From positions 1-64,000 of the IMG/VR virus record IMGVR_UViG_3300045911_000155: a stretch of DNA of 64,000 nucleotides, one strand, 5' to 3'. This document shows positions 10,314-63,359 of the stretch, piece after piece (positions within the stretch are counted from its first letter, which is position 1; every line of letters begins with the position of its first letter). The notes beneath the pieces were generated by a model that did not search any database, was not told the DNA's origin, and worked only from the letters and a program-made list of their open reading frames with translations. This stretch comes from a virus. Position numbers and translations under genes: made by a program.

Positions 10314-10667
10314 ATGGCATCAGCACTAGATCCCGTGACAAATTGGCCCGACGAAGTTCACATCGACTACACGAACTGGAAAGGCGAACGATCATGGCGG
10401 CGCATTACGCCGCGCGGCATCCGATTTGCCACGACGGACTATCACCCGGATGCGTGCTGGCTTTTGGATGCGTTCGATCTGGACAAACAGGCTGTACGGT
10501 CATTCGCGATCAAAGATATCCATGAATGGGCTGAGCCGGTGCCAGAACTGTACGTCCCGGAGCCGCCAGCAACGTTTGAACCCCGAACGTTCAAAGGCCG
10601 GATCGTTCACCGGTATGAACGTCCGACCTATCGGATTGAAGACTTCAGCGACGATGAGGAAGGCTAA
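10314..10667 (+). CDS. WYL-like domain protein, 117 aa
   Basis: The core IDYTNWKGERSWRRITPRG followed by WLLDAFDLDKQAVRSFAIKD resembles the WYL ligand-binding fold, which senses nucleotides or nucleic acid in bacterial regulators. There is no DNA-binding domain, so it may act as a stand-alone sensor or structural piece. The C-terminus is acidic. Assignment rests on motif resemblance. Confidence 0.7.
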   Translation: MASALDPVTNWPDEVHIDYTNWKGERSWRRITPRGIRFATTDYHPDACWLLDAFDLDKQAVRSFAIKDIHEWAEPVPELYVPEPPATFEPRTFKGRIVHRYERPTYRIEDFSDDEEG

Positions 10668-11682
10668 GCCTTCGTCACTGCGAACACTTCGATCATCCGC
10701 TGTTCAGAAGGCGAACCCATCGGCTTGCCGTCCGGCATAATGACGTTGTGGAACGTCGTGGGAAATTGAGAGAACCACTTCCCGGCACTCGACCGGTTGT
10801 CCTTCACGCTGTTCCGTACCACGAATTTCGAACCATCGGTGAAGGTAAAGGCGATTTCGCCACCGATTCCCTGTTGCATCACATGAGCGCGACCGATGAT
10901 TTTGCAGTCCAGAAGGTTGTCCTTGAGTTCCACGATCTTCGCCAGCTTCTTGGCGTTCTTGAAGAGGAACTGTTGCTGCATGAACTCCCCGGCGGTGTCA
11001 GCTTCCTTTTGGACGTACTTTTCCCATCCAGACAAGAACGCGACCGGATCGCCGTTCGGTTTCTTCTCAAACACGTACCAAGACCAGCGATTGATTTCCG
11101 GGTTGTACCGGGAGAATTCCCGCAAGCCCTTCGGATCGTCTTTGAGGGAGAAGTACTTCTGAAGGATGTCCGCGATGCGGTCGTACACCAGCTTGATGTA
11201 CTCGACTTTGATCTGTTCGGTCAGTTCGGTGAGAACAGCGATCACCTTCCGCCCGGCGTCCTTCGATGCCATCGGCGCGATGTATTGCTTCCGGGGATCA
11301 ACCACCGGCGCGGGCTGACGCTTCACGGATAATGCTTTGACCTTTTCCAAGGCCGCGTGCAATGTGACGACTTCCATGACGTACTCGACGTATTTCTTCG
11401 CATGTTCGTTGTTGGGGTCGTTCTTGAGAATCTTCTGTGTCAGCTTCAGCTTGCCCGCCGCGTGATTTGGCTGGAAGAAATCCACATCGGCATGGTAGGA
11501 CCACGACAGTATGTCCTTAGGAATCGTGCATTCGGAATGGCGTTGTCGGCTATCGCCTTGTTGATCGCGACGATGATTCGGTCTAACCGCTTCACTCCCG
11601 GAGCGGTCGAAGCAAGAATCGGAAACTGAGCAACGGTCAGCGGCGCGGCGCTCTCTGTGATGAATTCAGCGAAGGACTTCAT
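10664..11682 (-). CDS. Putative head-packaged protein with capsid-targeting-like N-terminus, frame-disrupted
   Basis: Starts MKSFAEFITES at 11682, close to the T4 capsid-targeting sequence MKTYQEFIAE with a gp21-type cleavage site I-T-E. The first frame runs to a stop at 11446, but the long downstream frame (10664-11485 and open upstream through TIPKDILSWSYHADVDFFQ) is the natural continuation. One missing base near 11535 restores about 339 residues. No enzyme motif is recognised in the body, which is helical and Lys-rich. A late-like CTACATAC box precedes it. Confidence 0.6.
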
Positions 11683-15047: not shown

Positions 15048-15889
15048 TTATGCAAGTTCGATGGTATCGTCATCGTTGCGGCTGAGAAGATCCGCCGGGA
15101 CAATTCCAAGTGTCAACACTGATCCGGCGGGCCGTTCGTGGCCGTAGACGACAATCGGTTCCGTGATCTTGACATGCATTTCCAGACCGGCGAAGAATCC
15201 GTGGTCGTCCAATTGGCGTCCGCCGTCGATCACACCCTTGTACGGTACACCGTGATATGTGCCAGTGACATCCAGTCCCCGGCGCAACTTCCGACCAAGC
15301 TCCGCGATCCGCTTGTTGTCGGCAAGGTAGTCGTCAAGAGCCTTCTGTGCTTTCGCGGCATTGGCTTTCGGCACAAGGTACTTGACCCCGACACTCACGA
15401 TGCGGAACTTCTTCAATTGGGCGCGGAAGTAGTTGGTGAAGTACTTGTGATTTGGTTCACCGCTGACCGGCGTCTTCAGTTCGACGTGATCGGCAAACGC
15501 GCCCATCTTTTCCAGTTCTTTCCGCTCATTGTCACTTCCGCCGTGCATTTGCAATACCAGATCGGCATCGGCCAAGGCATCGGCGGATTCTTCCGGTGCA
15601 TACCATCTCTTCTTGCCGAAGTCCCATACACCACCCGCCTTTTTGATGGCGTCCTTCTTGCCATAGGTGTCGCTACCGGTGACCGGGTAGAGCGGCGTCA
15701 GTCCCATCTTCTTCACAAGCGGAGCCTTTGTCAACGGGGCGAACCATGCTTTCGACATTCCATCGAACTTGGCACCCATCCGCTTGAGTTCGTCTTTCTT
15801 TTCGAATGAGTTGCCGCCAACTTTTACGTCGTAGAAGGAAGCGGCGCGGGTTGGATGGACTCCCGGAGGAACTGGAGGAAATTTGCCAT
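15048..15889 (-). CDS. Two-copy DUF5710-like protein with capsid-targeting-like N-terminus, frame-disrupted
   Basis: ATG 15889 begins MANFLQFLRES, a capsid-targeting-like motif with cleavage site L-R-E, 8 nt after a CTAAATAC late box. This frame stops at 15824; the long downstream frame is restored by one C in the CCC run near 15853. It contains two repeats of the form KKDELKRMGAKFDGMSKAWF and KKDAIKKAGGVWDFGKKRWY, the DUF5710-type pattern found in DNA-processing proteins. The C-terminal half is unassigned. About 281 residues when restored. Confidence 0.65.
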
Positions 15890-15897
15890 GACGCTTC

Positions 15898-15905
15898 GTA
15901 TTTAG
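15898..15905 (-). promoter_or_regulatory. Late promoter box CTAAATAC
   Basis: 8 nt before ATG 15889. Confidence 0.7.
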
Positions 15906-23417: not shown

Positions 23418-23987
23418 ATGAACAACACCAAAACTTACAACGTGCTTTTCGACGGCAAGTCGAATGAGAATGCGAATTCCGCGAAGTACCCCGTCGCCGA
23501 ATACGTCCCCGGTTCGGTTGACCTGAACGAAACTGTTGTCCAGTGCGTATCGTGGGACAACGACATGCTGGTCCCCAACACCCGCTACGAAGTCCGCACC
23601 GTGACGTTGCCCGAATGGTTGTCGCTTGAAGAGTGGTTGCGCTCCACGACTTCGTGGTCCTACCTGTGGGCCGATGCCCGCACGATGGAGTTGCCCGAAA
23701 ACTTCCAGCGCGCGCTTCTGAACTTCAGCGGCGGTCTTCGTGAAGCGATGGTCGCGCTCTTAGTGACCAAGAACTTCCGCTCCAGCTTCCGCCAGTCCTT
23801 GCGCGACCAGCTTGTGAAGTGGATCGCGACGCCGGTTGAAGAGCGTCAGTTCAACATGCCCTTCAGCCGCCGCCAGATCGAAGCGCTGGTGAAGGTCCGG
23901 GACGAATGGACCGCGAAGAACCGCTCCACCCGCGTCTACTACGCGAATCGGTATCAGGAAGCCGCCGGGATGCCGGTCGCGGCCTAA
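23418..23987 (+). CDS. Hypothetical early protein, 189 aa
   Basis: Begins MNNTKTYNVLFDGKSNEN; rich in Trp and Arg with no recognised domain. Own early promoter and standard leader. Convergent with the nucleotidyltransferase gene (4 nt overlap). Confidence 0.78.
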   Translation: MNNTKTYNVLFDGKSNENANSAKYPVAEYVPGSVDLNETVVQCVSWDNDMLVPNTRYEVRTVTLPEWLSLEEWLRSTTSWSYLWADARTMELPENFQRALLNFSGGLREAMVALLVTKNFRSSFRQSLRDQLVKWIATPVEERQFNMPFSRRQIEALVKVRDEWTAKNRSTRVYYANRYQEAAGMPVAA

Positions 23988-24628
23988 CGGTCCATCTTCC
24001 CTAGCAAGTCCCACTCATCGTCCGATTCTTCAAGCTGGTCGAAGTCGTCCTCATGGATGCCTAGACCAGCTTTCACTTCATCGAACATCTTCTTCGCCGC
24101 CTTCTCCGGGAAGTTCGGCGGAAGTCCCTTCCTGAACGCCGCCAAGTCGTTAGCCATCACCGCGTCGCGCTGTTGTGTTGCGCTCCACATTTCCGCCCCG
24201 GCGCGGTCGCCAGCACTCACCACATCGAAGTTCCGAAACTTGTACGTGCCGTCTGCAATCGCCGCCTTGATTTCGTTGACAAACTTGTCTGTGCGGTCGC
24301 CACCAAGCACGACGACCAGATCCGTGTATCCCTTGTCAGAATAGCTCTTCAGCACGTCCGGCGGGTCCGGCAAGGCCCGGTTGTACTTCACGTCCAACCC
24401 CGGTGCCATCATCTTGATGTACTTGATCTTCTCATCCGGGTCCAGCGGATTCTTCGGCACACTCTGTTTGAAGTTGACGTACAGAACAGCATCGCCGTGC
24501 CGCTTGCGCGCCTCATCCTTCAGCTTGTTGAAGAGCAACACATGTCCCCGGTGCGGCGGGTTGAACCGCCCGAAAGAGATCACGACGGTTTTTTTCTTGG
24601 GTTCAACGAATTCACGGAACGACAGCAT
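23984..24628 (-). CDS. Cytidylyltransferase-like nucleotidyltransferase with capsid-targeting-like N-terminus
   Basis: 214 residues. VVISFGRFNPPHRGHVLLF carries the HxGH nucleotide-binding motif of the cytidylyl/NMN adenylyltransferase superfamily. Preceding it is MLSFREFVEPKKK, resembling the capsid-targeting motif, although its cleavage residue pattern (V-E-P) is poorer than in the other four. Late box ATAAATAC lies 4 nt before the ATG. It could be an NMN adenylyltransferase for NAD synthesis or another adenylyltransferase; not resolvable by eye. Confidence 0.78.
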   Translation of the reverse strand: MLSFREFVEPKKKTVVISFGRFNPPHRGHVLLFNKLKDEARKRHGDAVLYVNFKQSVPKNPLDPDEKIKYIKMMAPGLDVKYNRALPDPPDVLKSYSDKGYTDLVVVLGGDRTDKFVNEIKAAIADGTYKFRNFDVVSAGDRAGAEMWSATQQRDAVMANDLAAFRKGLPPNFPEKAAKKMFDEVKAGLGIHEDDFDQLEESDDEWDLLGKMDR

Positions 24629-24632
24629 AACC

Positions 24633-24640
24633 GTATTTAT
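24633..24640 (-). promoter_or_regulatory. Late promoter box ATAAATAC
   Basis: 4 nt before the nucleotidyltransferase start codon. Confidence 0.7.
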
Positions 24641-44434: not shown

Positions 44435-45409
44435 ATGAAACCACACATCATTGCCGGTTCAGGTGGTGCTCACCTGTTGCCGACAATTCAGCAAGTGATG
44501 GGCATCCCGGAAAGCAATCCGGTCGTTTCCAAGAAATTCTCTGACGGAGAAATCTTCGTTCAGATCACACAGAACATCCGCAACGGCGACGTTTTCATCG
44601 TGCAGTCCACCAGTTCTCCGACGAATGATCGTGTCATGGAACTGATCCTGCTGATCGACGCGGCCCGGCGTGGTTCGGCTGAACGAATCACGTGCGTGAT
44701 CCCCTACTTCGGATATGCCCGACAGGACCGCAAAGAAATGTCCCGTGTGGCAATCTCCGCGCGGGCCGTCGCCAACTGTCTCGAAGCTGCCGGTGCCGAC
44801 CGCATCATCGCCGTGGACCTTCACGCCGCGCCGATTCAAGGGTTCTTCAACATCCCCGTAGACAATCTCTATGGTGGCCCGGTGATCGCAGACTCCTACA
44901 CCAACAACTTCCGGTTCGACCCGACGCTATTGACGGTTGTGTCTCCCGACGTGGGCGGCGTCGCCCGTGCCCGCCGGATGGCGGAAATCTTGAACGGCGC
45001 GCCTCTGGCGATCATTGACAAACGCCGCGAACAACACAATGTCGCGGAAGTCATGCACATCATCGGCGACGTGAAAGGTCGGCATTGCTTCATGCTGGAC
45101 GACATGATCGATACCGCCGGGACCGCATGTGAAGGCCGGAAGGCTCTTCTGGACGCGGGCGCGGCTTCCGTCACCTTCGCCGCGACGCACGGTGTCTTAT
45201 CCGGCCCGGCACTGGACCGGATTGTGGATAGTGGTCTGGACGTGATTATCACCGACTCCATTGACCAGTCCCGTGGACCGCACCGCGCGTGGGCGCGCGG
45301 TCAAATCCGCCGCGTGAGCATCGCCCCGCTGTTGGCGCAAGCAATCATGGCGACCCACAACGGCGATTCAATCAGTTCTCTCTTCCCAAGCAAAGCGGCT
45401 GCTGCCTAA
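44435..45409 (+). CDS. prs: Ribose-phosphate pyrophosphokinase-like enzyme
   Basis: 324 residues, normal PRPP synthetase length. Motifs: KKFSDGEIFV (near 28), YFGYARQDRKEMSR catalytic loop (near 90), VDLHAAPIQGFF (near 128), SPDVGG and the PRPP-binding MLDDMIDTAGT (near 210). Makes PRPP from ribose 5-phosphate and ATP for nucleotide or NAD synthesis. Homologues in phage NAD-reconstitution pathways instead act on ADP-ribose; sequence alone does not separate the two. Followed by a terminator. Confidence 0.9.
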   Translation: MKPHIIAGSGGAHLLPTIQQVMGIPESNPVVSKKFSDGEIFVQITQNIRNGDVFIVQSTSSPTNDRVMELILLIDAARRGSAERITCVIPYFGYARQDRKEMSRVAISARAVANCLEAAGADRIIAVDLHAAPIQGFFNIPVDNLYGGPVIADSYTNNFRFDPTLLTVVSPDVGGVARARRMAEILNGAPLAIIDKRREQHNVAEVMHIIGDVKGRHCFMLDDMIDTAGTACEGRKALLDAGAASVTFAATHGVLSGPALDRIVDSGLDVIITDSIDQSRGPHRAWARGQIRRVSIAPLLAQAIMATHNGDSISSLFPSKAAAA

Positions 45410-47894: not shown

Positions 47895-47902
47895 GTAAAT
47901 AG
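47895..47902 (+). promoter_or_regulatory. Late promoter box GTAAATAG
   Basis: 5 nt before ATG 47908. Confidence 0.68.
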
Positions 47903-47907
47903 TAGGT

Positions 47908-48277
47908 ATGCAAACCTTCGGCCAGTTCATCCGGGAGATGGCGGAATTCCCGGTGAAGGAAACCCCGCATCAAAAACAGATCCGGCTGAGCCGTGGGTAC
48001 AAGAAGATTGTACGGATCGACGCTGCCAAATTCAAAGCCCGGTTCGAAGCGGAGCAAGGGCAAAAGCTGGATTGGAATGCGTCCCGTGCCGACCGGCTGA
48101 AAGACTTGGAATCGGTTGATGCTTATCCACAAGGTGTTCATGGATTGGGCCGGGCGGGTGGATGTGTTGGACGGACGACATCGAATCGCAAACGCCGCCG
48201 CGAAAGGTATGTCGATCAAAGTTTCTATGCCGAATCGAAAAAAGGAAGGGGACATTCCGTCAGACTTGGTTGTCTGA
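47908..48277 (+). CDS. ParB-like protein with capsid-targeting-like N-terminus, frame-disrupted
   Basis: Starts MQTFGQFIREMAEF, with cleavage site I-R-E, 5 nt after a late box. The first frame runs on to 48282 but loses sense after DLESVDAYPQ. The +1 frame gives VDVLDGRHRIANAAAKG and ends at 48277, the signature of ParB/sulfiredoxin-like domains (DGRHR). A change near 48110-48140 restores about 122 residues. ParB-like domains in phages bind DNA or nucleotides; role unknown. Confidence 0.65.
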
Positions 48278-48306
48278 CATAGATGTCCCGTGGTATACTC
48301 AAGATG

Positions 48307-49725
48307 ATGTCATTTCGACAATTCCTATTTGAAAGCGCGAAGGCCGAAGAAGCCTTGAACGCGGTACGCAATGCGCTCATCGGTTCGAAGTATGAGCAAG
48401 ACGTGTACCTTGTAGGCGGGGCCGTTCGCGATATGCAAATGGGCTTGCCGGTCAAGGACTTAGACCTTGTGGTGGACAACCACGGTCTTGAGGGTGGCAT
48501 CGAATGTGCGACTTTCTTGGCGAAGGCGCTTGGCGTTTTCCGCCCGGATTCAAACCCGGTGATCTTCCCGCGATTCGGCACTGCGAAGCTGACGTTGAAG
48601 AGCGGGTTCGACGTGGAGTTCGTCGCGCCGCGCAAAGAGAAGTACGACGCCAACAGCCGGAAGCCGGTTGTGTCTGCCGGTACGCTCGAAGACGATGCGT
48701 TCCGCCGCGACTTCACGATCAATTCCCTGTTCATGCGCCTGTCGAATTCCGAACTCCGGGATCTGACCGGGCGCGGTCTGGCCGATTTGAAGCGCAAGAC
48801 CATCCAAACGACCAGCGACGCCACCTACATCTTCAGCGAAGATCCGTTGCGCATGTTGCGCGCCGTCCGGTTCGCAATCAAGTACGACTTCGAATTGCCG
48901 CTGGCACTCATCAAGGCAATCAAGGTGAATGCCCGGCGGCTTCAGACGATCAGCAAGGAACGCATTCAGGACGAACTGAACAAGATCCTTGTGCTGAAGA
49001 CGCCATCGCGCGCGATCCGCCTGTTCAAGATTACCGGGTTGCTGAAAGAGTTCATGCCGGAACTGCAAGCGCTGTCCGGCGTCACTCAGAACGCCTATCA
49101 CAAGCACGACGCTTTCGACCACACGCTTGATGTGCTGGACAATGCGCCGCCGGATCTGACTGTCCGGCTTGCCGCGCTGTTCCACGACATCGGCAAGGCC
49201 GCGACCCGCACCGACGACGGTGGAAAGGTTCGTTTCCTTGGTCACGCCAATGTCGGTGCCGAAATCGCTGTCGAAGTCATGAAGCGGTTGAAGTACTCGA
49301 ACGACGACACGGAGAAGATCCGCAAGATCGTGTTTCATCACATGGACATGAAGTTCGCTGGTGACGATCTGGCGACGCTGAAGGACAAGAGCCTTCGGAA
49401 GCTCATCTTCCGTGTTGCCGACAAACTGGACCCGCTGTTGAGCCTGATGCATGCCGACAACATCAGCCATGCGGAGCACGCCAATATGCCGAATCAGATC
49501 AACCTCATCCGGCAACGCATCAAGGATTGGGACATCGAATCCATCCTGAACACCACCAGTGTTCTGGACGGCAACGAAATCGCCGCCTTGGGCGCGAAGG
49601 GTCCGCTGATCGGCAAGATCAAAGGTCGCATTCTGGACAAGGTTCTGGAGAATCCCTCTTTCTCGAAGAAGGACGCCACTCTGATGGCACAGAGCATGAT
49701 CCGTGATGCCGCCGGAAAGAAGTAA
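48307..49725 (+). CDS. cca: CCA-adding tRNA nucleotidyltransferase with capsid-targeting-like N-terminus
   Basis: 472 residues of the class II polymerase beta superfamily. YLVGGAVRDMQMGLPVKDLDLVV carries the GG and D-x-D motifs, RRDFTINSLF and LRMLRAVRFAIKYDF follow, and a C-terminal HD domain has HDAFDHTLDVLD, FHDIGKA and a later HHMDMKF. It adds or repairs 3' CCA. The N-terminus MSFRQFLFES looks like a capsid-targeting sequence (L-F-E site). TATACT lies 7 nt before this ATG (an ATG 3 nt upstream is possible). It probably also cotranscribes from the late box at 47895. Confidence 0.9.
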   Translation: MSFRQFLFESAKAEEALNAVRNALIGSKYEQDVYLVGGAVRDMQMGLPVKDLDLVVDNHGLEGGIECATFLAKALGVFRPDSNPVIFPRFGTAKLTLKSGFDVEFVAPRKEKYDANSRKPVVSAGTLEDDAFRRDFTINSLFMRLSNSELRDLTGRGLADLKRKTIQTTSDATYIFSEDPLRMLRAVRFAIKYDFELPLALIKAIKVNARRLQTISKERIQDELNKILVLKTPSRAIRLFKITGLLKEFMPELQALSGVTQNAYHKHDAFDHTLDVLDNAPPDLTVRLAALFHDIGKAATRTDDGGKVRFLGHANVGAEIAVEVMKRLKYSNDDTEKIRKIVFHHMDMKFAGDDLATLKDKSLRKLIFRVADKLDPLLSLMHADNISHAEHANMPNQINLIRQRIKDWDIESILNTTSVLDGNEIAALGAKGPLIGKIKGRILDKVLENPSFSKKDATLMAQSMIRDAAGKK

Positions 49726-49728
49726 CGA

Positions 49729-50328
49729 TTGAAAGACTACCCTAGCATCGAAGGCAGTGCCCGCGCGCCGATTGGCAAGCCGTGCATTGCCTTCTACAAA
49801 TACGACGGATCGAATCTCCGGTGGGAATGGTCGCCGAAGCAAGGCTGGCACAAGTTCGGCACCCGGAACCGACTCTTCGACAAAACTGACGCTGTGTTCG
49901 CCCCGGCGATTCCGATCTTCCTCAACACGATGGGCGATGAAATCGTCCGGCGGGTGAAAGATCACGACCGGAACTGTCAGCGCATCACTGCGTTTACCGA
50001 GTATTTCGGTCCCGGATCTTTCGCCGGTCAACACGTGCCGGGTGCTCCGATGGAACTCCGGTTGTTCGATACGTTTCTGTTCAAGAAAGGGTTGATCCCT
50101 CCCCGGCAATTCCTCAAAATGTTCGGCGACCTTCCGTGGGCGGCGGAAGTGGTCTACGAAGGCAACCTGACCAAAGAGTTCATCAAGGATGTTCGCGACG
50201 GCAAATACCCTGTGTGGGAAGGCGTCATCGCGAAGGGCGACGACTTCATGTGCAAGATCAAGACCAATGCTTACTTCGCCAAGTTGAACGAAGTTTACGG
50301 TACCGACTACCGGAAGTATTGGGAGTAG
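49729..50328 (+). CDS. RNA ligase (Rnl2-like family)
   Basis: 199 residues. The adenylation motif is FYKYDGSNLRWEW (catalytic Lys in KYDG) with TRNRLFD, and motifs IV/V appear as WEGVIAKGDDFMCKIKT. Such ligases seal broken tRNA or duplex RNA nicks. TTG start 3 nt after the CCA enzyme stop, so the two form one operon. Short length suggests a minimal catalytic domain. Confidence 0.87.
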   Translation: MKDYPSIEGSARAPIGKPCIAFYKYDGSNLRWEWSPKQGWHKFGTRNRLFDKTDAVFAPAIPIFLNTMGDEIVRRVKDHDRNCQRITAFTEYFGPGSFAGQHVPGAPMELRLFDTFLFKKGLIPPRQFLKMFGDLPWAAEVVYEGNLTKEFIKDVRDGKYPVWEGVIAKGDDFMCKIKTNAYFAKLNEVYGTDYRKYWE

Positions 50329-57234: not shown

Positions 57235-58125
57235 GCCGGACACCGTTTCCAGTGTCCGGGCAATGACCTTCAGTTCTTTCTTGTTGGCCGTCTTCCGGCG
57301 AACCACGATGGGTTCGGCCAGCTTGTCCGGTACGTCGCGATAGCGGATCACGTGACGCATGCCGGGTTCCACCAGATTGAAGCGGCGACGGGTCCATTGA
57401 TCGCTATTCTCATAGGTGTGGACCTTGTACACTTCGTCCGGCGAATGGTACTGATATTCGACCACCGTCCAGACGTAGAAGACCGTCAGCGGGTTCCCGT
57501 GCTGGCACACCATCGGGGCCGGGCTACGGTACTGCTCATACCGGGGCCGCTCATCCCATTTCGGATGATTGCACCGGCACGACGATTTCATGCGCTTCTC
57601 CCGGACGAAAAACGTGCTCCCGTACCACAGAAGGCGATCCGGGTCCGCCGTCTTCCGGTTGTCCCGCTTCCGCCACGTCGTCGAAGAATTGTGGTGGTCG
57701 AGAATGCCGGTTTCCGGGTTGATGTATAGGCCGTCCACTTCCACCCACCGGCTATAGTTCCGGTAGTAAGGGACACCGCCCGACATCTCCACGTGGCGCT
57801 CGACGTGCTGATAAAGGTGCTGCATGACGTGCAGACCGATAGCGCTACGGGTATCGATGTTGGCGCGGATTTCGCTGTAAACCTCATCCCACGGGCGACC
57901 GGCGGACGCATCCAAATACCGGTACAGCGGGCTGAGATTTTCGTTCAGTTCTTTTGATTCCCACCCGTACATCCGCCGCCGACCGTTCGGCAAGAATTGG
58001 GGACCGGAATCGTAATCATCATCATAGTCAACGTGCGGGTCCAACCGTTTGCCGGTCTTCATCGACAGGCTACGGCTCCCGATCCGCTGACGTTCGCAGA
58101 TCAATTTGTCCATGTCAGGACGCAT
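57229..58125 (-). CDS. Conserved large-phage protein, 298 aa
   Basis: Begins MRPDMDKLICERQRIGSRS. KELNENLSPLYRYLDASAGRPW, DEVYSEIRANIDTRSAIGLHV and a CRCNHPKW site are features of a family found in many large phages and some bacteria, with unknown function. Preceded by a strong AGGAGGTAACAC site that is duplicated upstream (next entry). Confidence 0.78.
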   Translation of the reverse strand: MRPDMDKLICERQRIGSRSLSMKTGKRLDPHVDYDDDYDSGPQFLPNGRRRMYGWESKELNENLSPLYRYLDASAGRPWDEVYSEIRANIDTRSAIGLHVMQHLYQHVERHVEMSGGVPYYRNYSRWVEVDGLYINPETGILDHHNSSTTWRKRDNRKTADPDRLLWYGSTFFVREKRMKSSCRCNHPKWDERPRYEQYRSPAPMVCQHGNPLTVFYVWTVVEYQYHSPDEVYKVHTYENSDQWTRRRFNLVEPGMRHVIRYRDVPDKLAEPIVVRRKTANKKELKVIARTLETVSGK

Positions 58126-58138
58126 GTAGTGTTACCTC

Positions 58139-58159
58139 CTACCTAAACCCTGTTTGCAT
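58139..58159 (-). CDS. Six-residue leader ORF (MQTGFR)
   Basis: ATG CAA ACA GGG TTT AGG TAG, preceded by GGAGGTAACACC; the same AGGAGGTAACAC motif recurs immediately downstream before ATG 58125. Its stop is part of the second ribosome binding site. It may couple or regulate translation of the 298 aa protein, or be a by-product of a short duplication. Confidence 0.4.
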   Translation of the reverse strand: MQTGFR

Positions 58160-58235
58160 GGTGTTACCTCCTGTCATAGAAATGGTGTGCGGTCGGCGCA
58201 CGTTTGTAATTATACCCTACTCGTTTTCCATTGTC

Positions 58236-59123
58236 ATGTATTCTGAGAGGGTGATCGATCTGAACCGCGCCACAGGCGCATTACTAGGGCTGGCCGTTGG
58301 TGACGCTGTGGGAGCCACCAACGAATTCACAATGGCACCGGCACCCATCAATGACATGGTGGGCGGCGGGCCGTTCGATTTGGCTCCCGGCGAATGGACA
58401 GATGACACATCGATGGCATTGTGTTTGGCCGATAGCCTGATCGCCAAGCGGGGATTTGACGGCGCGGACCAGATTGCCCGTTACATCCGCTGGTGGAAGG
58501 AAGGGTACAACAGCGTTTTAGGGTATTGCTTCGACATCGGCAACACCACCCGCGCGGCCCTACAGCGGCATTTGGACACCGGGGTAGTGTATGCGGGTAG
58601 TAACGACCCGGAAGCGTCCGGGAACGGTTCTCTGATGCGGCTGGCACCCATCCCCATCTTCTTCGCCAATAGTGTGATGGCGACAACCGGGATGGCTGTA
58701 GCGTCGTCGATTGTGACACACGCGGCGAAGGATTGCACCGATTCCTGTTTCCAATACGCTTTGATGATTCGCCGGGCACTCTTAGGAAAGACCAAAGAAG
58801 AGGTATTTGAAAACATCAAGGTCGTGGCGCGGGAAGATGTTGTTCCATCCGGCTATGTTGTGGAAAGCATGGAAGCCGCGCTATACTGCTTTGCAAACAC
58901 CGACAATTTCCGGGACGGCTGTCTCATGGCCGCGAACCTTGGCGGCGATTCAGACACCATTGCGGCGATCTACGGCCAGCTTGCCGGGGCCTTCTATGGC
59001 GAATCCGGCATCCCGGCGGAATGGCTGGCGAAACTGTCGTGGTGTGATGACATCCGGCAAAAGGCCATTCAATTGGTAGAAGTGGGTCAAACCTATGAAG
59101 AAAACAAGAATTCAACAGTATGA
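58236..59123 (+). CDS. ADP-ribosylglycohydrolase (DraG-like)
   Basis: 295 residues. GALLGLAVGDAVGATNEF, GEWTDDTSMAL (metal ligands), SGNGSLMRLAPIP and ANLGGDSDTIAAIYGQLAGA are the DraG family motifs. It removes ADP-ribose from proteins or nucleic acids, or cleaves ADP-ribose derivatives. ATG 58236 fits better than GTG 58251, which has no room for a ribosome binding site. Overlaps the next gene by 29 nt. Confidence 0.9.
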   Translation: MYSERVIDLNRATGALLGLAVGDAVGATNEFTMAPAPINDMVGGGPFDLAPGEWTDDTSMALCLADSLIAKRGFDGADQIARYIRWWKEGYNSVLGYCFDIGNTTRAALQRHLDTGVVYAGSNDPEASGNGSLMRLAPIPIFFANSVMATTGMAVASSIVTHAAKDCTDSCFQYALMIRRALLGKTKEEVFENIKVVAREDVVPSGYVVESMEAALYCFANTDNFRDGCLMAANLGGDSDTIAAIYGQLAGAFYGESGIPAEWLAKLSWCDDIRQKAIQLVEVGQTYEENKNSTV

Positions 59124-59838: not shown

Positions 59839-61173
59839 TTAGGTGAGGTTGATGACCTTGACCAAGCGGTAGTACGGGTTGCTGGCGCTGATGATGTCGC
59901 CCGAAGCGTTCGTGTAGTACGGGTTCGACACAAGGCCGTAACGGGTACGGAACGCAATCTTCGGCTGGAGGGTGTTTTCACCGACCGCACGAACCATCTG
60001 GAGCGGGATGTAGGGGCAGTAGAAGAAGCCCGCGTCGTAGGCATTAGTACCTTTGTACCCTACCATTAGGAGTTCGGTATTAAGGTCGCCCGTGTTGTCG
60101 AAGTACGGATCAACGAAGACCTTGTAGCGACCGTTGATAACGCCCGCGAAGGTGTTGCCCGTGTCATCGACCGTCAGGTTGGTGTTCAACGCCGGGGCGT
60201 AGTTCAGGACACCCGCCATGTGCAACGCGGACGCAACGTCCGAAGAGCACACGATGAAGTTACCCTTACCACGACGGGTGTCACGACCGATCTGGTTCGC
60301 GTCACGCTCGACTTGGAACATCAAGCCCTTGAACTTTTCAGCCAACCAACGACCGTTGGAGTCCGTGTCAAGGTCAAACACACCAGCGTTAGCGGTGCCC
60401 TTCTGAGCGCCCGGCTTCGCGATGTAGTACAAGGTGCGAACAACTTCACGGTTGATTTCGGCCAAGATTTCCGTGGAGAGAATCGAAGCCAATTCCGTTT
60501 CGGCGTCCATACCGTGCAGGGCCTTAAGATCCTGCGCCAGTTCGACAGTGTATTCTGCCTTCAGTGCGCGGGTCTTCGCCGTGACGGTAACCTTGTCGAT
60601 GAAGATCGACATTTCGTTGAACGACGGCTGGTTCGTTTCGCCAAGGACTTCACCTTGCAGCGTGGTCATACCGCGACCAGTTGCGTAACCACCGGCAAAC
60701 GGGTTGCTACCGCTGTGGGCAGTACCGTTGTGACCGGCGTTCGGTGCGCCCGGCTTCTGACCGGCGAAGTCCGTGTCGGATTCCGACATGAAGGCTTCGT
60801 TGGTCTGGTTGTAGTTGGTGGACGAAGACTGCGGGCCGTACTTCGAACGCATCGCGAAGATGAGTCCAGTCGGACCAGTCATCGGCTGAACACCACAGAT
60901 GTCGTATGCAACAAGGTTCGGCATCGCGCGACGCACCATCGAAATCATGATGGGGTCCCACGCACCGATGTTTCCGCCGCCCATCGTGTTGCTGCCTTCC
61001 GACAACAACTGTGCCTTCTGTTCCTTCAGATCACGATATTGATTTTCGAGGATCTGAATGGTGACATCGCGACGGTGTGCATCGACCTTGCCCTGAAGAT
61101 CGGTGATCTTCGGCATGTCCGTGTGATCAATGATTTTCTGCCATTTTGAGCGTAGTGCAGGTGAGAGGTTCAT
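59839..61173 (-). CDS. gp23: gp23-like major capsid protein
   Basis: 444 residues. IGAWDPIMISMVRRAMPNLV and YDICGVQPMTGPTGLIFAMR are hallmark T4 gp23 segments; YTVELAQDLKALHGMDAETE lies near residue 210 and the C-terminus RTRYGLVSNPYY also fits. QLLSE-GSN near residue 59 provides an L-S-E site where the gp21-like protease would remove the N-terminal delta peptide. SD TAGGAG precedes the ATG; late box CTAAATAG is 30 nt upstream. Confidence 0.95.
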   Translation of the reverse strand: MNLSPALRSKWQKIIDHTDMPKITDLQGKVDAHRRDVTIQILENQYRDLKEQKAQLLSEGSNTMGGGNIGAWDPIMISMVRRAMPNLVAYDICGVQPMTGPTGLIFAMRSKYGPQSSSTNYNQTNEAFMSESDTDFAGQKPGAPNAGHNGTAHSGSNPFAGGYATGRGMTTLQGEVLGETNQPSFNEMSIFIDKVTVTAKTRALKAEYTVELAQDLKALHGMDAETELASILSTEILAEINREVVRTLYYIAKPGAQKGTANAGVFDLDTDSNGRWLAEKFKGLMFQVERDANQIGRDTRRGKGNFIVCSSDVASALHMAGVLNYAPALNTNLTVDDTGNTFAGVINGRYKVFVDPYFDNTGDLNTELLMVGYKGTNAYDAGFFYCPYIPLQMVRAVGENTLQPKIAFRTRYGLVSNPYYTNASGDIISASNPYYRLVKVINLT

Positions 61174-61203: not shown

Positions 61204-61211
61204 CTATTTAG
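61204..61211 (-). promoter_or_regulatory. Late promoter box CTAAATAG
   Basis: Contains the TAA stop of the scaffold gene; drives the capsid gene with a 30 nt leader and a real ribosome binding site, unlike most late genes here. Confidence 0.7.
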
Positions 61212-62659
61212 CGCTGGCTCTTGTTCAACGTTTTCACGTAGAGCGCGATGTCTTCCGAAAGAGGCTCAGCATCAGCGGCCTTCGGCGCGGTCTTCTTCTG
61301 ATCCTGTTCGGTCAGAGTGCCCTTCGCCTTTTCCTTCGGGAAGTACGATTCCTTGAGCGTGGTCAGCGCGCTGGCAAACTGAGTGCTGTTCTGGAAGGCG
61401 ATACCTTCCGCCAACTTGCTCAGACGATCAGCTTGCGTAGCGGTCAAACCGGTGGAAGCCTTGCGGACCATTTCCGTGCGGCGGTAGCGGGTCAAGGATT
61501 CACGCAACTTCATGTTCTCCTTGGCGGATTCGTTGAGACGGCCTTCGAGCTTGGACAACTTCTTGCCCATGACCTTGAGAACATCGACCTTCGATTGCGG
61601 AACTTCGATGTAGTGTTCAACGAACAGCTTCTTCAACCCGGACAGGAAGTCTTCGGCCAACTCAGCGCGGATACCGGCTTCAACGGCCAAACGATTTTCC
61701 TTCAACCACTGCGAAGAAACGTAGGTCAGGTAGCGGTCAACCTGTTCCGACAACTTCGCTTCATGTGCGGCAATGCGCGCGTCAGACTTCTTCTTCAACA
61801 GCGCATACGCTTCCTTCAACTTCTTCGACGCTTCTTCAGCAACACGCTTGCGGGTCGCAGCGGCGCGGGTCTTGACAGCGGCTTCGAACACAACGGACGC
61901 CTTCTTGCGGAAGTCTTCCGGCAAGCTAGCTTCGCCGAAGATCGCCTTCTCATCGTCGGTCACTTCGTCGTCGTCGCCTTCGGTGACTTGCAGCTTCGGT
62001 TCCGGCGGCTCCGGTTCGGTGATGCCGATTTCGCCCGGCTGAACGTCTTCCTTCACATCAGGATCGCCGTCGCCGTCCTTGTCCAGCTTCTTCTTCAGGA
62101 AGTCAGGCATGTCGTCCTTGTCTTCCTTCACCTTCTTGCCCTTCACCGGCTTCTTGGATTCCTTGACCTTCTTCTTGGTCTTGGATTCCGCGACAACTTC
62201 GTCGTCGTCCTTGTCTTCGTCTTCGGCCACAACGTCGTCTTCGTCGTTGTCGTCATCTTCCGACAGTTCGCCTTCCGGCTTGTCGGGATCGCCTTCGGCT
62301 TCCTTCAAACGAGCGATCATTTCGGAGAACGTCTTGTCAAGGTCGTCGTCTTCGTCGGCATCTTCCGATACAACGTCGTCTTCTTCCTTGTCGTCGTCTT
62401 CCGTCACGATTTCATCGTCTTCGTCAGCATCGGCGTCTTCGACAACTTCGTCGTCGCTCATGTCGTCAACGTCGAAATCATCTTCTGCGACCATCTTGTC
62501 AGCGTCATCTTCTTCCGCTTCCATCGGCCACTTCTTGTCGATTGCGTTTGCTTGCGGAACGTCGGCTTGTTTCACGTCCGCTGAGAAGTCAGCGGGGTAG
62601 TTACCAGCCGCCGTAGCTTCCTTGAGCATTTCGAGAATTTTGCTTTCAAAAGCACCCAT
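61208..62659 (-). CDS. gp22: gp22-like prohead scaffold protein
   Basis: 483 residues, extremely acidic between about residues 50 and 210 (D/E runs with KK spacers) and helical in the C-terminal half (KTRAAATRKRVAEEASKKLK, SKLEGRLNESAKENMKLRES). Position between protease and capsid genes matches T4 gp22. It begins MGAFESKILEMLKEA with an I-L-E site. Would form the internal core and be degraded during maturation. Confidence 0.9.
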   Translation of the reverse strand: MGAFESKILEMLKEATAAGNYPADFSADVKQADVPQANAIDKKWPMEAEEDDADKMVAEDDFDVDDMSDDEVVEDADADEDDEIVTEDDDKEEDDVVSEDADEDDDLDKTFSEMIARLKEAEGDPDKPEGELSEDDDNDEDDVVAEDEDKDDDEVVAESKTKKKVKESKKPVKGKKVKEDKDDMPDFLKKKLDKDGDGDPDVKEDVQPGEIGITEPEPPEPKLQVTEGDDDEVTDDEKAIFGEASLPEDFRKKASVVFEAAVKTRAAATRKRVAEEASKKLKEAYALLKKKSDARIAAHEAKLSEQVDRYLTYVSSQWLKENRLAVEAGIRAELAEDFLSGLKKLFVEHYIEVPQSKVDVLKVMGKKLSKLEGRLNESAKENMKLRESLTRYRRTEMVRKASTGLTATQADRLSKLAEGIAFQNSTQFASALTTLKESYFPKEKAKGTLTEQDQKKTAPKAADAEPLSEDIALYVKTLNKSQR

Positions 62660-62692: not shown

Positions 62693-62700
62693 GTATTTAG
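62693..62700 (-). promoter_or_regulatory. Late promoter box CTAAATAC
   Basis: Contains the TAA stop of the protease gene; 33 nt before the scaffold ATG, with TAGGAGAACAAACAA as ribosome binding site. Confidence 0.7.
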
Positions 62701-63359
62701 TGTTTCCGCGAAAGTTCAGAAAGGAAACGGCTGAAGGCTTCGACCATCTTGTCGGTGTCGCGGAAGTCTTTTTCAACAATCCGCTTGTACTTAGCAACTT
62801 GACGTTCGACCAAAATGCCGTTGTTCCAGACCCATTCCCGGCCTTCCATCACGCCCCGGACAAAGGCTTGCGGCGCGGAGGGATCGGCCACAATGTCCGC
62901 CGCCGTGTTCAACTGGAAATCGTCCTGAACGACTTGAGTGCCATCGGCCTCTTCGCTCAGCGAACCCATACCACGGCTCGAAACTCCCAATTTGGCTTCT
63001 TCATCCATCAAGGACTTCACGATCTTTCCCATCGGGGTTTCGGTCATGATCTTCGCCTTGCCGATGAAATTCGTGCCTTCCTTGCGAAGTTCCTTGATGA
63101 TGTGGGACACACGGTCCAGATTGATCGACGGGCTGTCCGGGTGGTTGAGTTCGCCGAATGCACGATTGTGCTTGACGTACTCATTCACGTACCGGGTGAC
63201 TTCCGGTTCCATGACTTCCATCGGGTAGATGCGTCCGTTTCGGTTCTTCAGTGCCGCTTGCAGAAAGATGCCTTCGATGAAATAGCCCTTCGATGGCGAC
63301 TTCGCAACGGTGATATTCTCGTTTACCTCAGTGATGAGGCGTAGTGGTTTTTGTGGCAT
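62697..63359 (-). CDS. gp21: gp21-like prohead protease
   Basis: 220 residues. GYFIEGIFLQAALKNRNGRIYP, AFGELNHPDSPSINLDRVSH (catalytic His) and KLGVSSRGMGS (catalytic Ser) are the motifs of the T4 gp21/herpes assemblin fold. It cleaves after L/I-x-E sites in scaffold, capsid and internal proteins. Predicted to cut the capsid-targeting-like N-termini reported in this window. Confidence 0.93.
   Translation of the reverse strand: MPQKPLRLITEVNENITVAKSPSKGYFIEGIFLQAALKNRNGRIYPMEVMEPEVTRYVNEYVKHNRAFGELNHPDSPSINLDRVSHIIKELRKEGTNFIGKAKIMTETPMGKIVKSLMDEEAKLGVSSRGMGSLSEEADGTQVVQDDFQLNTAADIVADPSAPQAFVRGVMEGREWVWNNGILVERQVAKYKRIVEKDFRDTDKMVEAFSRFLSELSRKH

What the first reader, a model, noticed from the sequence alone, without database searches (positions are those of the whole stretch)
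48307..49725. Enzymes with capsid-targeting-like N-termini: possible virion-packaged cargo
Five unrelated proteins begin with nearly the same short motif: MKSFAEFITES (11682, minus), MANFLQFLRES (15889, minus), MLSFREFVEPK (24628, minus), MQTFGQFIREM (47908, plus) and MSFRQFLFES (48307, plus). T4 internal protein III begins MKTYQEFIAE, a capsid-targeting sequence cleaved by gp21 after L/I-x-E; four of the five here have L/I-x-E at the right place, and a gp21-like protease is in the window. Four have a late box directly before the start and the fifth follows a late-promoter gene. One is a CCA-adding enzyme, one a nucleotidyltransferase, one ParB-like and one DUF5710-like. If packaged, they would be delivered with the DNA.
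Basis: partly seen in the sequence, partly recalled or inferred. Interest (0 to 1): 0.9.

Follow-up and report, generated by a model that had tools for sequence, protein, structure and literature searches.

The report
Phage enzymes tagged for head packaging
This T4-like phage puts almost the same ten-residue 'load me into the head' tag on a set of unrelated enzymes, one of them a tRNA-repair enzyme; relatives bearing the tag have already been found in purified particles of other phages, so the phage probably injects a small enzyme kit with its DNA.

Summary
The five N-termini are real. Corrections: three of the five have a TAAATA late box, not four; the 47908, 15889 and 11682 frames are broken by indels in this contig but intact in a near-identical 224-kb phage (G001); the CCA enzyme's better start is 48304 (MMSFRQFLFES).

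In G001, 9 of 292 gene starts fit the motif against 0.08 expected, including a Dps-like ferritin and a zinc-peptidase-like protein. In 71 unrelated viral proteins, positions left free in the search converge on MK[ST]Fx[EQ]F[IL]xE|[AS]. That matches T4's mapped capsid-targeting sequence (residues 4 and 7 target; 8 and 10 are processed).

Independent proteomes agree. In cyanophage S-CREM2 all four motif proteins were detected in virions by mass spectrometry (p = 0.003). Pooled over three phages it is 6 of 9 against 1.7 expected (p = 0.002). The window's cytidylyltransferase belongs to the family found in all three. In 33 aligned relatives of the CCA enzyme, Glu10 is invariant although the first ten residues lie outside the confident fold.

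Verdict: capsid-targeted enzyme cargo, well supported by inference. Packaging, cleavage and injection are not shown for this phage. New variant of a known kind.

The parts
48304..49725 (+). E: CCA-adding/poly(A)-polymerase-type tRNA nucleotidyltransferase with HD domain, predicted head cargo; start at 48304 rather than 48307
   Evidence: Pfam PolyA_pol 8e-23, PolyA_pol_RNAbd, HD; PDB tRNA nucleotidyltransferases 8e-32
48304..48333 (+). tag of E, MMSFRQFLFE; predicted cut after Glu10 (codon 48331-48333)
   Evidence: Glu10 invariant in 33 aligned relatives; pLDDT about 50 over residues 1-10, 92 overall
47908..48282 (+). D: tagged protein with a GRHRIA motif, function unassigned; frame broken here by a 1-base insertion relative to G001; tag MQTFGQFIRE at 47908-47937
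   Evidence: no Pfam or PDB match
47896..47901 (+). TAAATA late box before D (and E)
23984..24628 (-). C: cytidylyltransferase (NMNAT)-like protein, tag-like start MLSFREFVEP (24599-24628) with V8 and P10, so perhaps targeted but not cut
   Evidence: CTP_transf_like, phrog_3041/395; 72 of 80 viral relatives have the full tag
24634..24639 (-). TAAATA late box before C
15048..15889 (-). B: DUF5710 protein, tag MANFLQFLRE at 15860-15889; frame broken here by a 7-base deletion relative to G001
   Evidence: DUF5710, intact in G001, indel
15899..15904 (-). TAAATA late box before B
10664..11682 (-). A: protein of unknown function (361 aa when intact in G001), tag MKSFAEFITE at 11653-11682; frame broken here by deletions relative to G001
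62697..63359 (-). gp21-type prohead protease; own N-terminal site LITE|V at 63327-63338
   Evidence: Peptidase_S77 1.8e-36, phrog_207, site
61208..62659 (-). gp22-type scaffold, the core that tags would bind; seven [L/I]-x-E-small sites
   Evidence: T4_CASP 2.3e-65, sites
59839..61173 (-). gp23-type major capsid protein; predicted maturation site AQLLSE59|G (E codon 60997-60999)
   Evidence: Gp23 1.4e-141, site

Best explanation
The five proteins, and at least five more in the complete relative G001, carry a T4-type capsid-targeting sequence: a ten-residue propeptide with aromatic residues at 4 and 7 and, in most, [I/L]-x-E at 8-10. Late in infection they are made, many from their own late promoter, and bind the gp22/gp21 prohead core through residues 4 and 7. 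They are enclosed as gp23 assembles, and most are then cut by gp21 after Glu10, which frees the folded enzyme inside the DNA-filled head; they enter the next host with the DNA. The tag is modular: it sits on unrelated domains (CCA-adding enzyme, NMNAT-like transferase, DUF5710, Dps-like ferritin, peptidase-like and DUF2786 proteins here; kinase, SAM hydrolase and others in relatives). For the CCA enzyme the likeliest job is restoring tRNA 3' ends in the newly infected cell; this is the weakest step (about 0.3). Shown by sequence: the motif, its match to T4, gp21 and its sites, position-specific conservation. Shown by others' data in relatives: virion presence of several tagged proteins. Inferred: packaging, cleavage, injection and function in this phage.
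For: 9 of 292 gene starts vs 0.08 expected in G001, p 2e-16. Free positions in 71 unrelated viral proteins converge on the T4 IPIII N-terminus, e.g. A/S/G after Glu10 in 42 of 71, p 2e-12 (T4 sequences). T4 mutagenesis maps targeting to residues 4 and 7 and processing to 8 and 10 (PMC9026906). Virion proteomes: S-CREM2 4 of 4 motif proteins detected, p 0.003; three phages pooled 6 of 9 vs 1.7 expected, p 0.002. Cytidylyltransferase family tagged in 72 of 80 and detected in virions of all three phages. CCA enzymes: Glu10 in 33 of 33, I/L8 in 32, G/S/A11 in 31; a 29%-identical CCA-type enzyme with MIPFKKFFFES in a gp21-positive contig. gp21 in 14 of 21 tagged contigs of 60 kb or more vs 3 of 23 controls. 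Fifty marine T7-like records: 0 matches. AF2: tag outside the confident fold.
Against: No proteomics for this phage or for any CCA enzyme; N-terminal cleavage not observed in any cyanophage. Two of three tagged proteins in S-SZBM1 and one of two in S-SCSM1 were not detected (they are small). CsCl carry-over was not excluded by the S-CREM2 authors. Member C lacks Glu10. The late-box scan favours T4-like phages by design, and the 33 CCA relatives were chosen mostly for aligning at the N-terminus. Some T4-like phages (Mosig, HTVC008M) lack the motif.
Confidence: 0.82

Rival explanations
1. The shared start is a DNA- or RNA-level cassette: a late promoter with a downstream start region that spreads by recombination or helps translation. 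The peptide has no targeting role.
For: 6 of the 10 tag-type genes in G001 have TAAATA within 25 bases of the start, against 26 of 292 genes overall. T-even cassette swapping around shared promoter regions is known (own knowledge).
Against: Tag codons differ between genes and change synonymously, or I to V, at residues 4, 7, 8 and 10 between the window and G001. Genes E, G and H and many cytidylyltransferases have the peptide without the box. A/S/G is favoured after Glu10.
Confidence: 0.06
2. The tag sends proteins to another place (host membrane, replication compartment, tail or baseplate) or docks them to some other phage protein; the likeness to T4 is convergence on a short amphipathic helix.
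For: A short helix with F4, F7 and I/L8 is a generic docking peptide; no direct localisation data exist here.
Against: Agreement with the T4 sequence at unconstrained positions, including the residue after the cut; gp21 co-occurrence; virion detection.
Confidence: 0.06
3. Tagged proteins are packaged but serve head assembly or DNA condensation (core fillers, Dps-like) and are not meaningfully injected or active in the host.
For: T4 core contains about 1,000 internal protein copies (PMC5694885); a Dps-like ferritin is among the tagged proteins.
Against: Most cargo are enzymes with conserved catalytic motifs, e.g. GGAVRD, DLD and RRDFTIN in E; T4 IPI is injected and inhibits a host nuclease (PMC3012670).
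Confidence: 0.1
4. Chance: a short motif picked by eye.
For: The motif was chosen after reading one window, and looser regex matches include chance ones.
Confidence: 0.01

Closest known systems
T4 internal proteins IPI, IPII, IPIII and their capsid-targeting sequence (MKTYQEFIAE)
   Same: Ten-residue N-terminal tag with aromatic 4 and 7, I/L at 8, E at 10, small residue after; gp21, gp22 and gp23 present; several unrelated bodies behind one tag.
   Different: T4 cargo are small basic proteins; here most cargo are larger, several with catalytic domains (CCA enzyme, NMNAT-like, ferritin, peptidase-like), ten per genome. Packaging not shown here.
T4 Alt ADP-ribosyltransferase (packaged, injected, cut by gp21)
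   Same: An enzyme carried in the head and processed by gp21 (PMC9026906, PMC5694885).
   Different: By the T4 literature its propeptide is not of the F4/F7 IPIII type (own knowledge, not aligned here); one enzyme rather than a set.
Virion-associated cytidylyltransferase/NMNAT, APH/ChoK-like kinase and SAM hydrolase of cyanophages S-CREM2, S-SZBM1, S-SCSM1, S-CRM01
   Same: Same tag; the cytidylyltransferase family is shared with the window.
   Different: Found by mass spectrometry in virions with no targeting signal proposed; this phage has a different kit and no proteomics.
Ejection proteins of giant phages such as SPN3US and phiKZ
   Same: Head proteins delivered with DNA after prohead-protease cleavage.
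   Different: Most propeptides are much longer, about 80-130 residues (PMC5694885).

Membership tests
T4-type capsid-targeting sequence (CTS) | Short N-terminal propeptide with aromatic residues at positions 4 and 7 (targeting) | tested here: met
   F4 and F7 in all five window proteins, E counted from 48304; 9 further or intact cases in G001
T4-type capsid-targeting sequence (CTS) | I/L at 8 and Glu at 10 (processing) | tested here: met
   Met in A, B, D and E; not in C (V8, P10); A in G001 has V8. Glu10 33/33 in E relatives
T4-type capsid-targeting sequence (CTS) | gp21-type prohead protease and gp22/gp23 substrates with [L/I]-x-E sites in the same genome | tested here: met
T4-type capsid-targeting sequence (CTS) | Late expression | tested here: inconclusive
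   TAAATA before three of five starts, six of ten in G001; no expression data
T4-type capsid-targeting sequence (CTS) | Protein present in purified virions | tested here: inconclusive
   Not testable for this phage; 6 of 9 motif proteins detected in three cyanophages, p 0.002
T4-type capsid-targeting sequence (CTS) | Cleavage after position 10 by gp21 | not testable with these tools
   Only consensus fit; needs semi-tryptic peptides or Edman data
CCA-adding enzyme / poly(A) polymerase (class II nucleotidyltransferase with HD domain) | PolyA_pol head, RNA-binding and HD domains with GGxxRD, DxD and RRDxTxN motifs | tested here: met
   AF2 pLDDT 92
CCA-adding enzyme / poly(A) polymerase (class II nucleotidyltransferase with HD domain) | Adds CCA to tRNA rather than poly(A) to RNA | not testable with these tools
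   Needs a biochemical assay
   No Pfam or PDB match; only weak phrog_17560

The most novel reading that the evidence does not exclude
Across T4-like phages of water and soil the T4 capsid tag is a general, swappable address label. With it each phage injects its own first-strike kit of enzymes (tRNA repair, NAD/nucleotide transfer, kinases, SAM hydrolase, Dps-like and ATP-grasp proteins) that act before any phage gene is expressed, and the kit can be read from genome sequence by the N-terminus alone.
Probability: 0.6. Interest if true: 0.87.

Novelty: new variant of a known kind. Interest (0 to 1): 0.77.

Why it matters
It would turn an old T4 finding into a genome-readable predictor of which phage proteins are injected, and would give one cause for the unexplained 'virion-associated enzymes' of cyanophages. 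Injected proteins act before phage gene expression, so tagged unknown proteins are prime candidates for counter-defence. A tagged CCA-type enzyme, found in two phages whose copies are only 29% identical, points to tRNA 3'-end damage as something phages may have to repair at entry. The key claim is testable now with existing raw proteomic data.

Tried and rejected
Exact DNA search for one tag: no use, codons differ. CCA enzyme as a single-sequence query in viral contigs: only G001; the alignment query gave 80 relatives. gp23 contigs as a T4-like sample: mostly fragments around the head genes, 7 matches vs 5 control, uninformative. AF2 with three sequences: pLDDT 47, discarded; repeated with 33. 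PDB search for the peptidase-like and GRHRIA proteins: nothing useful. Literature on a CTS survey in cyanophages or on a packaged tRNA nucleotidyltransferase: none found in the held library; subscription papers could not be searched. Considered and rejected: contig G148 (202 kb, no gp21) as a counter-example, because it ends inside gp23, so its gp21 is probably cut off.

Full report
1. What the window is. The window is bases 1-64,000 of an 80,560-base IMG/VR virus record. It carries T4-type head genes: gp23 59839-61173, gp22 61208-62659, gp21 (Peptidase_S77) 62697-63359. From the translations, portal, tail tube, tail sheath and terminase follow in the 63.5-80.5 kb part (by inspection). gp23 is closest to that of Pelagibacter phage Mosig (59%) and cyanophages. 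A near-identical, much longer relative exists: IMGVR_UViG_3300044641_007115, 224,490 bases, CCA enzyme 98% identical, here called G001.

2. The observation. The strict DNA pattern for M-x-x-F-x-x-F-hydrophobic-x-E gives 4 matches in the record and 8 in G001, and none for the reversed pattern. In G001 the intact forms of A, B and D are seen, plus five new members: J 68369+ MLSFQSFLAEV and I 71339- MSGFLTYLREQ (both DUF2786), H 77855+ MKTFQRFLRES (unknown), F 137351- MKGFHQFLKES (Dps-like ferritin) and G 136761- MLTFEQFLSEA (AHEVGHH zinc-peptidase-like, from its sequence only). 9 of 292 gene starts match the strict form, against 0.08 expected from internal positions.

3. Peptide, not DNA. Between the window and G001 the tag codons change synonymously, or I to V, at residues 4, 7, 8 and 10; free positions change more freely. 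Of its 123 matches, 103 head frames of 60 aa or more (or frames that run off the contig), against 29 of 80 for a register-shifted control (p = 7e-12). The 71 non-redundant proteins are extremely varied. Those placed by Pfam include cytidylyltransferases, an ATP-grasp RimK-like protein, P-loop kinase-like proteins, a methyltransferase-like protein, a DPBB lytic-transglycosylase-like protein and a second CCA-type enzyme. At positions that the search left free they converge: K2 39/71, S/T3 43/71, E/Q6 35/71, I/L8 56/71, A/S/G11 42/71 (p = 2e-12). The consensus MK[ST]Fx[EQ]F[IL]xE|[AS] is the T4 IPII/IPIII N-terminus MKTYQEFIAE|A.

4. Match to T4 experiment. Black and colleagues showed that the first ten residues of IPIII suffice for incorporation, that residues 4 and 7 govern targeting, that 8 and 10 govern processing, and that Asp10 blocks processing but not targeting (review PMC9026906). 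These are the conserved residues here. The same review suggests that the CTS may be how T4-like phages take varied proteins into their capsids, so the general idea is not new. The window's own gp23, gp22 and gp21 carry [L/I]-x-E sites: AQLLSE59|G, seven in gp22, LITE|V. Protein C has V8 and P10; by the T4 data it would be targeted but perhaps not cut.

5. Who has the tag. Of contigs of 60 kb or more whose match heads a real gene, 14 of 21 carry a gp21 above the Pfam cut-off, against 3 of 23 control contigs (p = 5e-4). At 140 kb and above it is 10 of 11, and the exception (G148) ends inside gp23, so its gp21 is probably off the contig. Two large contigs whose match was a chance 13-14 aa frame have none. 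Fifty marine T7-like records have no match. The late box in the pattern favours T4-like phages, so this is supporting rather than independent evidence. Not every T4-like phage has the tag: Mosig and HTVC008M have no match.

6. Independent test on published virion proteomes. The motif was fixed before these data were examined. S-CREM2 (OR473000; PMC10665884 Table 3) has 219 ORFs, 52 detected in CsCl-purified virions. Four annotated starts fit the strict motif: gp6 SAM hydrolase MKDFDSFLEE, gp14 APH/ChoK-like kinase MKRFDAFLTE, gp136 MQTFSMFFSE and gp154 cytidylyltransferase MKNFSSFLTEA. All four were detected (p = 0.003). Detected gp13 (MKDLHSFLTE) and the Cas9-like gp12 (LRFASFMAEA at residues 17-26) are near matches. 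In S-SZBM1 (OL473597, PMC9146016) the only enzyme detected, cytidylyltransferase gp140, starts MRFRQFIIEA; two small tagged proteins were not detected. In S-SCSM1 (MK867354, PMC9602691) the detected NMNAT-like gp91 starts MKSFLQFLKEA; one small tagged protein was not detected. Pooled: 6 of 9 against 1.7 expected, p = 0.002. The S-CRM01 kinase, reported in virions according to PMC10665884, starts MISFDQFLSEKK, and a neighbouring cytidyltransferase MKLFNQFFKEA. The S-CREM2 authors left open carry-over versus encapsidation; the tag favours encapsidation.

7. The two cargo families of the window. Cytidylyltransferase: 72 of 80 viral relatives carry the strict tag, fused directly to the catalytic domain or before an added GDGHGGWYD segment. 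CCA enzyme: 282 viral stretches encode a relative. In 33 aligned ones Glu10 is invariant, residue 8 is I/L in 32 and residue 11 is G/S/A in 31, while 4 and 7 are mostly Leu in one large group (MxxLKxLLxE|G), an apparent leucine version of the tag. These 33 were chosen mostly for aligning at the N-terminus, so the figure is not a survey; a class-2 regex fits 34 of all 80. A 29%-identical CCA-type enzyme, MIPFKKFFFE|S, sits in the gp21-positive contig G104. gp21 is found in 9 of 12 CCA-bearing contigs of 99 kb or more. An AF2 model on the 33 sequences has mean pLDDT 92, but residues 1-10 average 50: the tag lies outside the confident body, so the fold does not explain Glu10. The megaphage homologue in LR756501 aligns only from residue 12 and shows no such tag.

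8. Mechanism. Late transcription, binding to the gp22/gp21 core through F4/F7, enclosure by gp23, cut after Glu10 by gp21, ejection with the DNA. Targeting and cutting are inferred from T4; ejection is inference. For the CCA enzyme the likeliest role is repairing tRNA 3' ends at entry; an RNA-ligase-like gene (phrog_548, 1.3e-5) lies directly downstream at 49729-50328. That role is speculation (about 0.3).

9. Standing. As a signal it meets the tested defining features of the T4 CTS; virion presence in this phage and cleavage could not be tested. What is new is the cargo (catalytic enzymes), the number per genome, the recurrence of the CCA enzyme and the link to orphan virion enzymes. I therefore call it a new variant of a known kind.

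Noticed in passing
window 44435-45409 (+), 57954-59123 (+); G001 97361-98068 (+): A ribose-phosphate pyrophosphokinase, an ADP-ribosylglycohydrolase and, in G001, a nicotinamide/nicotinate phosphoribosyltransferase-type gene: parts that recall the phage NAD+ reconstitution pathway NARP1.
   Followed up: partly
window 49729-50328 (+): RNA-ligase-like protein (KYDGS motif, phrog_548 1.3e-5) directly downstream of the CCA enzyme and without a tag; possible tRNA-repair partner.
   Followed up: no
window 10664-11682 (-), 15048-15889 (-), 47908-48282 (+): Small indels break several frames of this contig that are open in G001; assembly or sequencing errors are likely, real decay cannot be excluded.
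   Followed up: partly
record C1 72367-75129 (-), outside the window: The large terminase reads as 912 aa with what looks like an intein inserted just before the CPRQCGKST Walker A motif.
   Followed up: no
L050:667-831 (-), T4 NC_000866 18966-19130: T4's own gp61.1, an unassigned 54-aa protein, starts MKTFKEFIKE: a possible unrecognised capsid-targeted protein in T4 itself.
   Followed up: no
L519, L522, L547, L561, L573 and others, start of the CCA-type gene: A leucine version of the tag, MxxLKxLLxE|G, in large phages many of which carry gp21.
   Followed up: partly
L179, L207, L214, L249, L251; L187, L209, L224: The register-shifted control scan turned up real gene families with a late box and the starts MRFFEFKxxES and MRAFEFLxxEA: possibly another N-terminal tag.
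   Followed up: no
L500:749-5145 (S-CRM01 127c-131c); L492:7704-13331 (S-CREM2 gp12-gp15): Runs of neighbouring genes that all start with tag-like sequences, around the virion kinase.
   Followed up: partly
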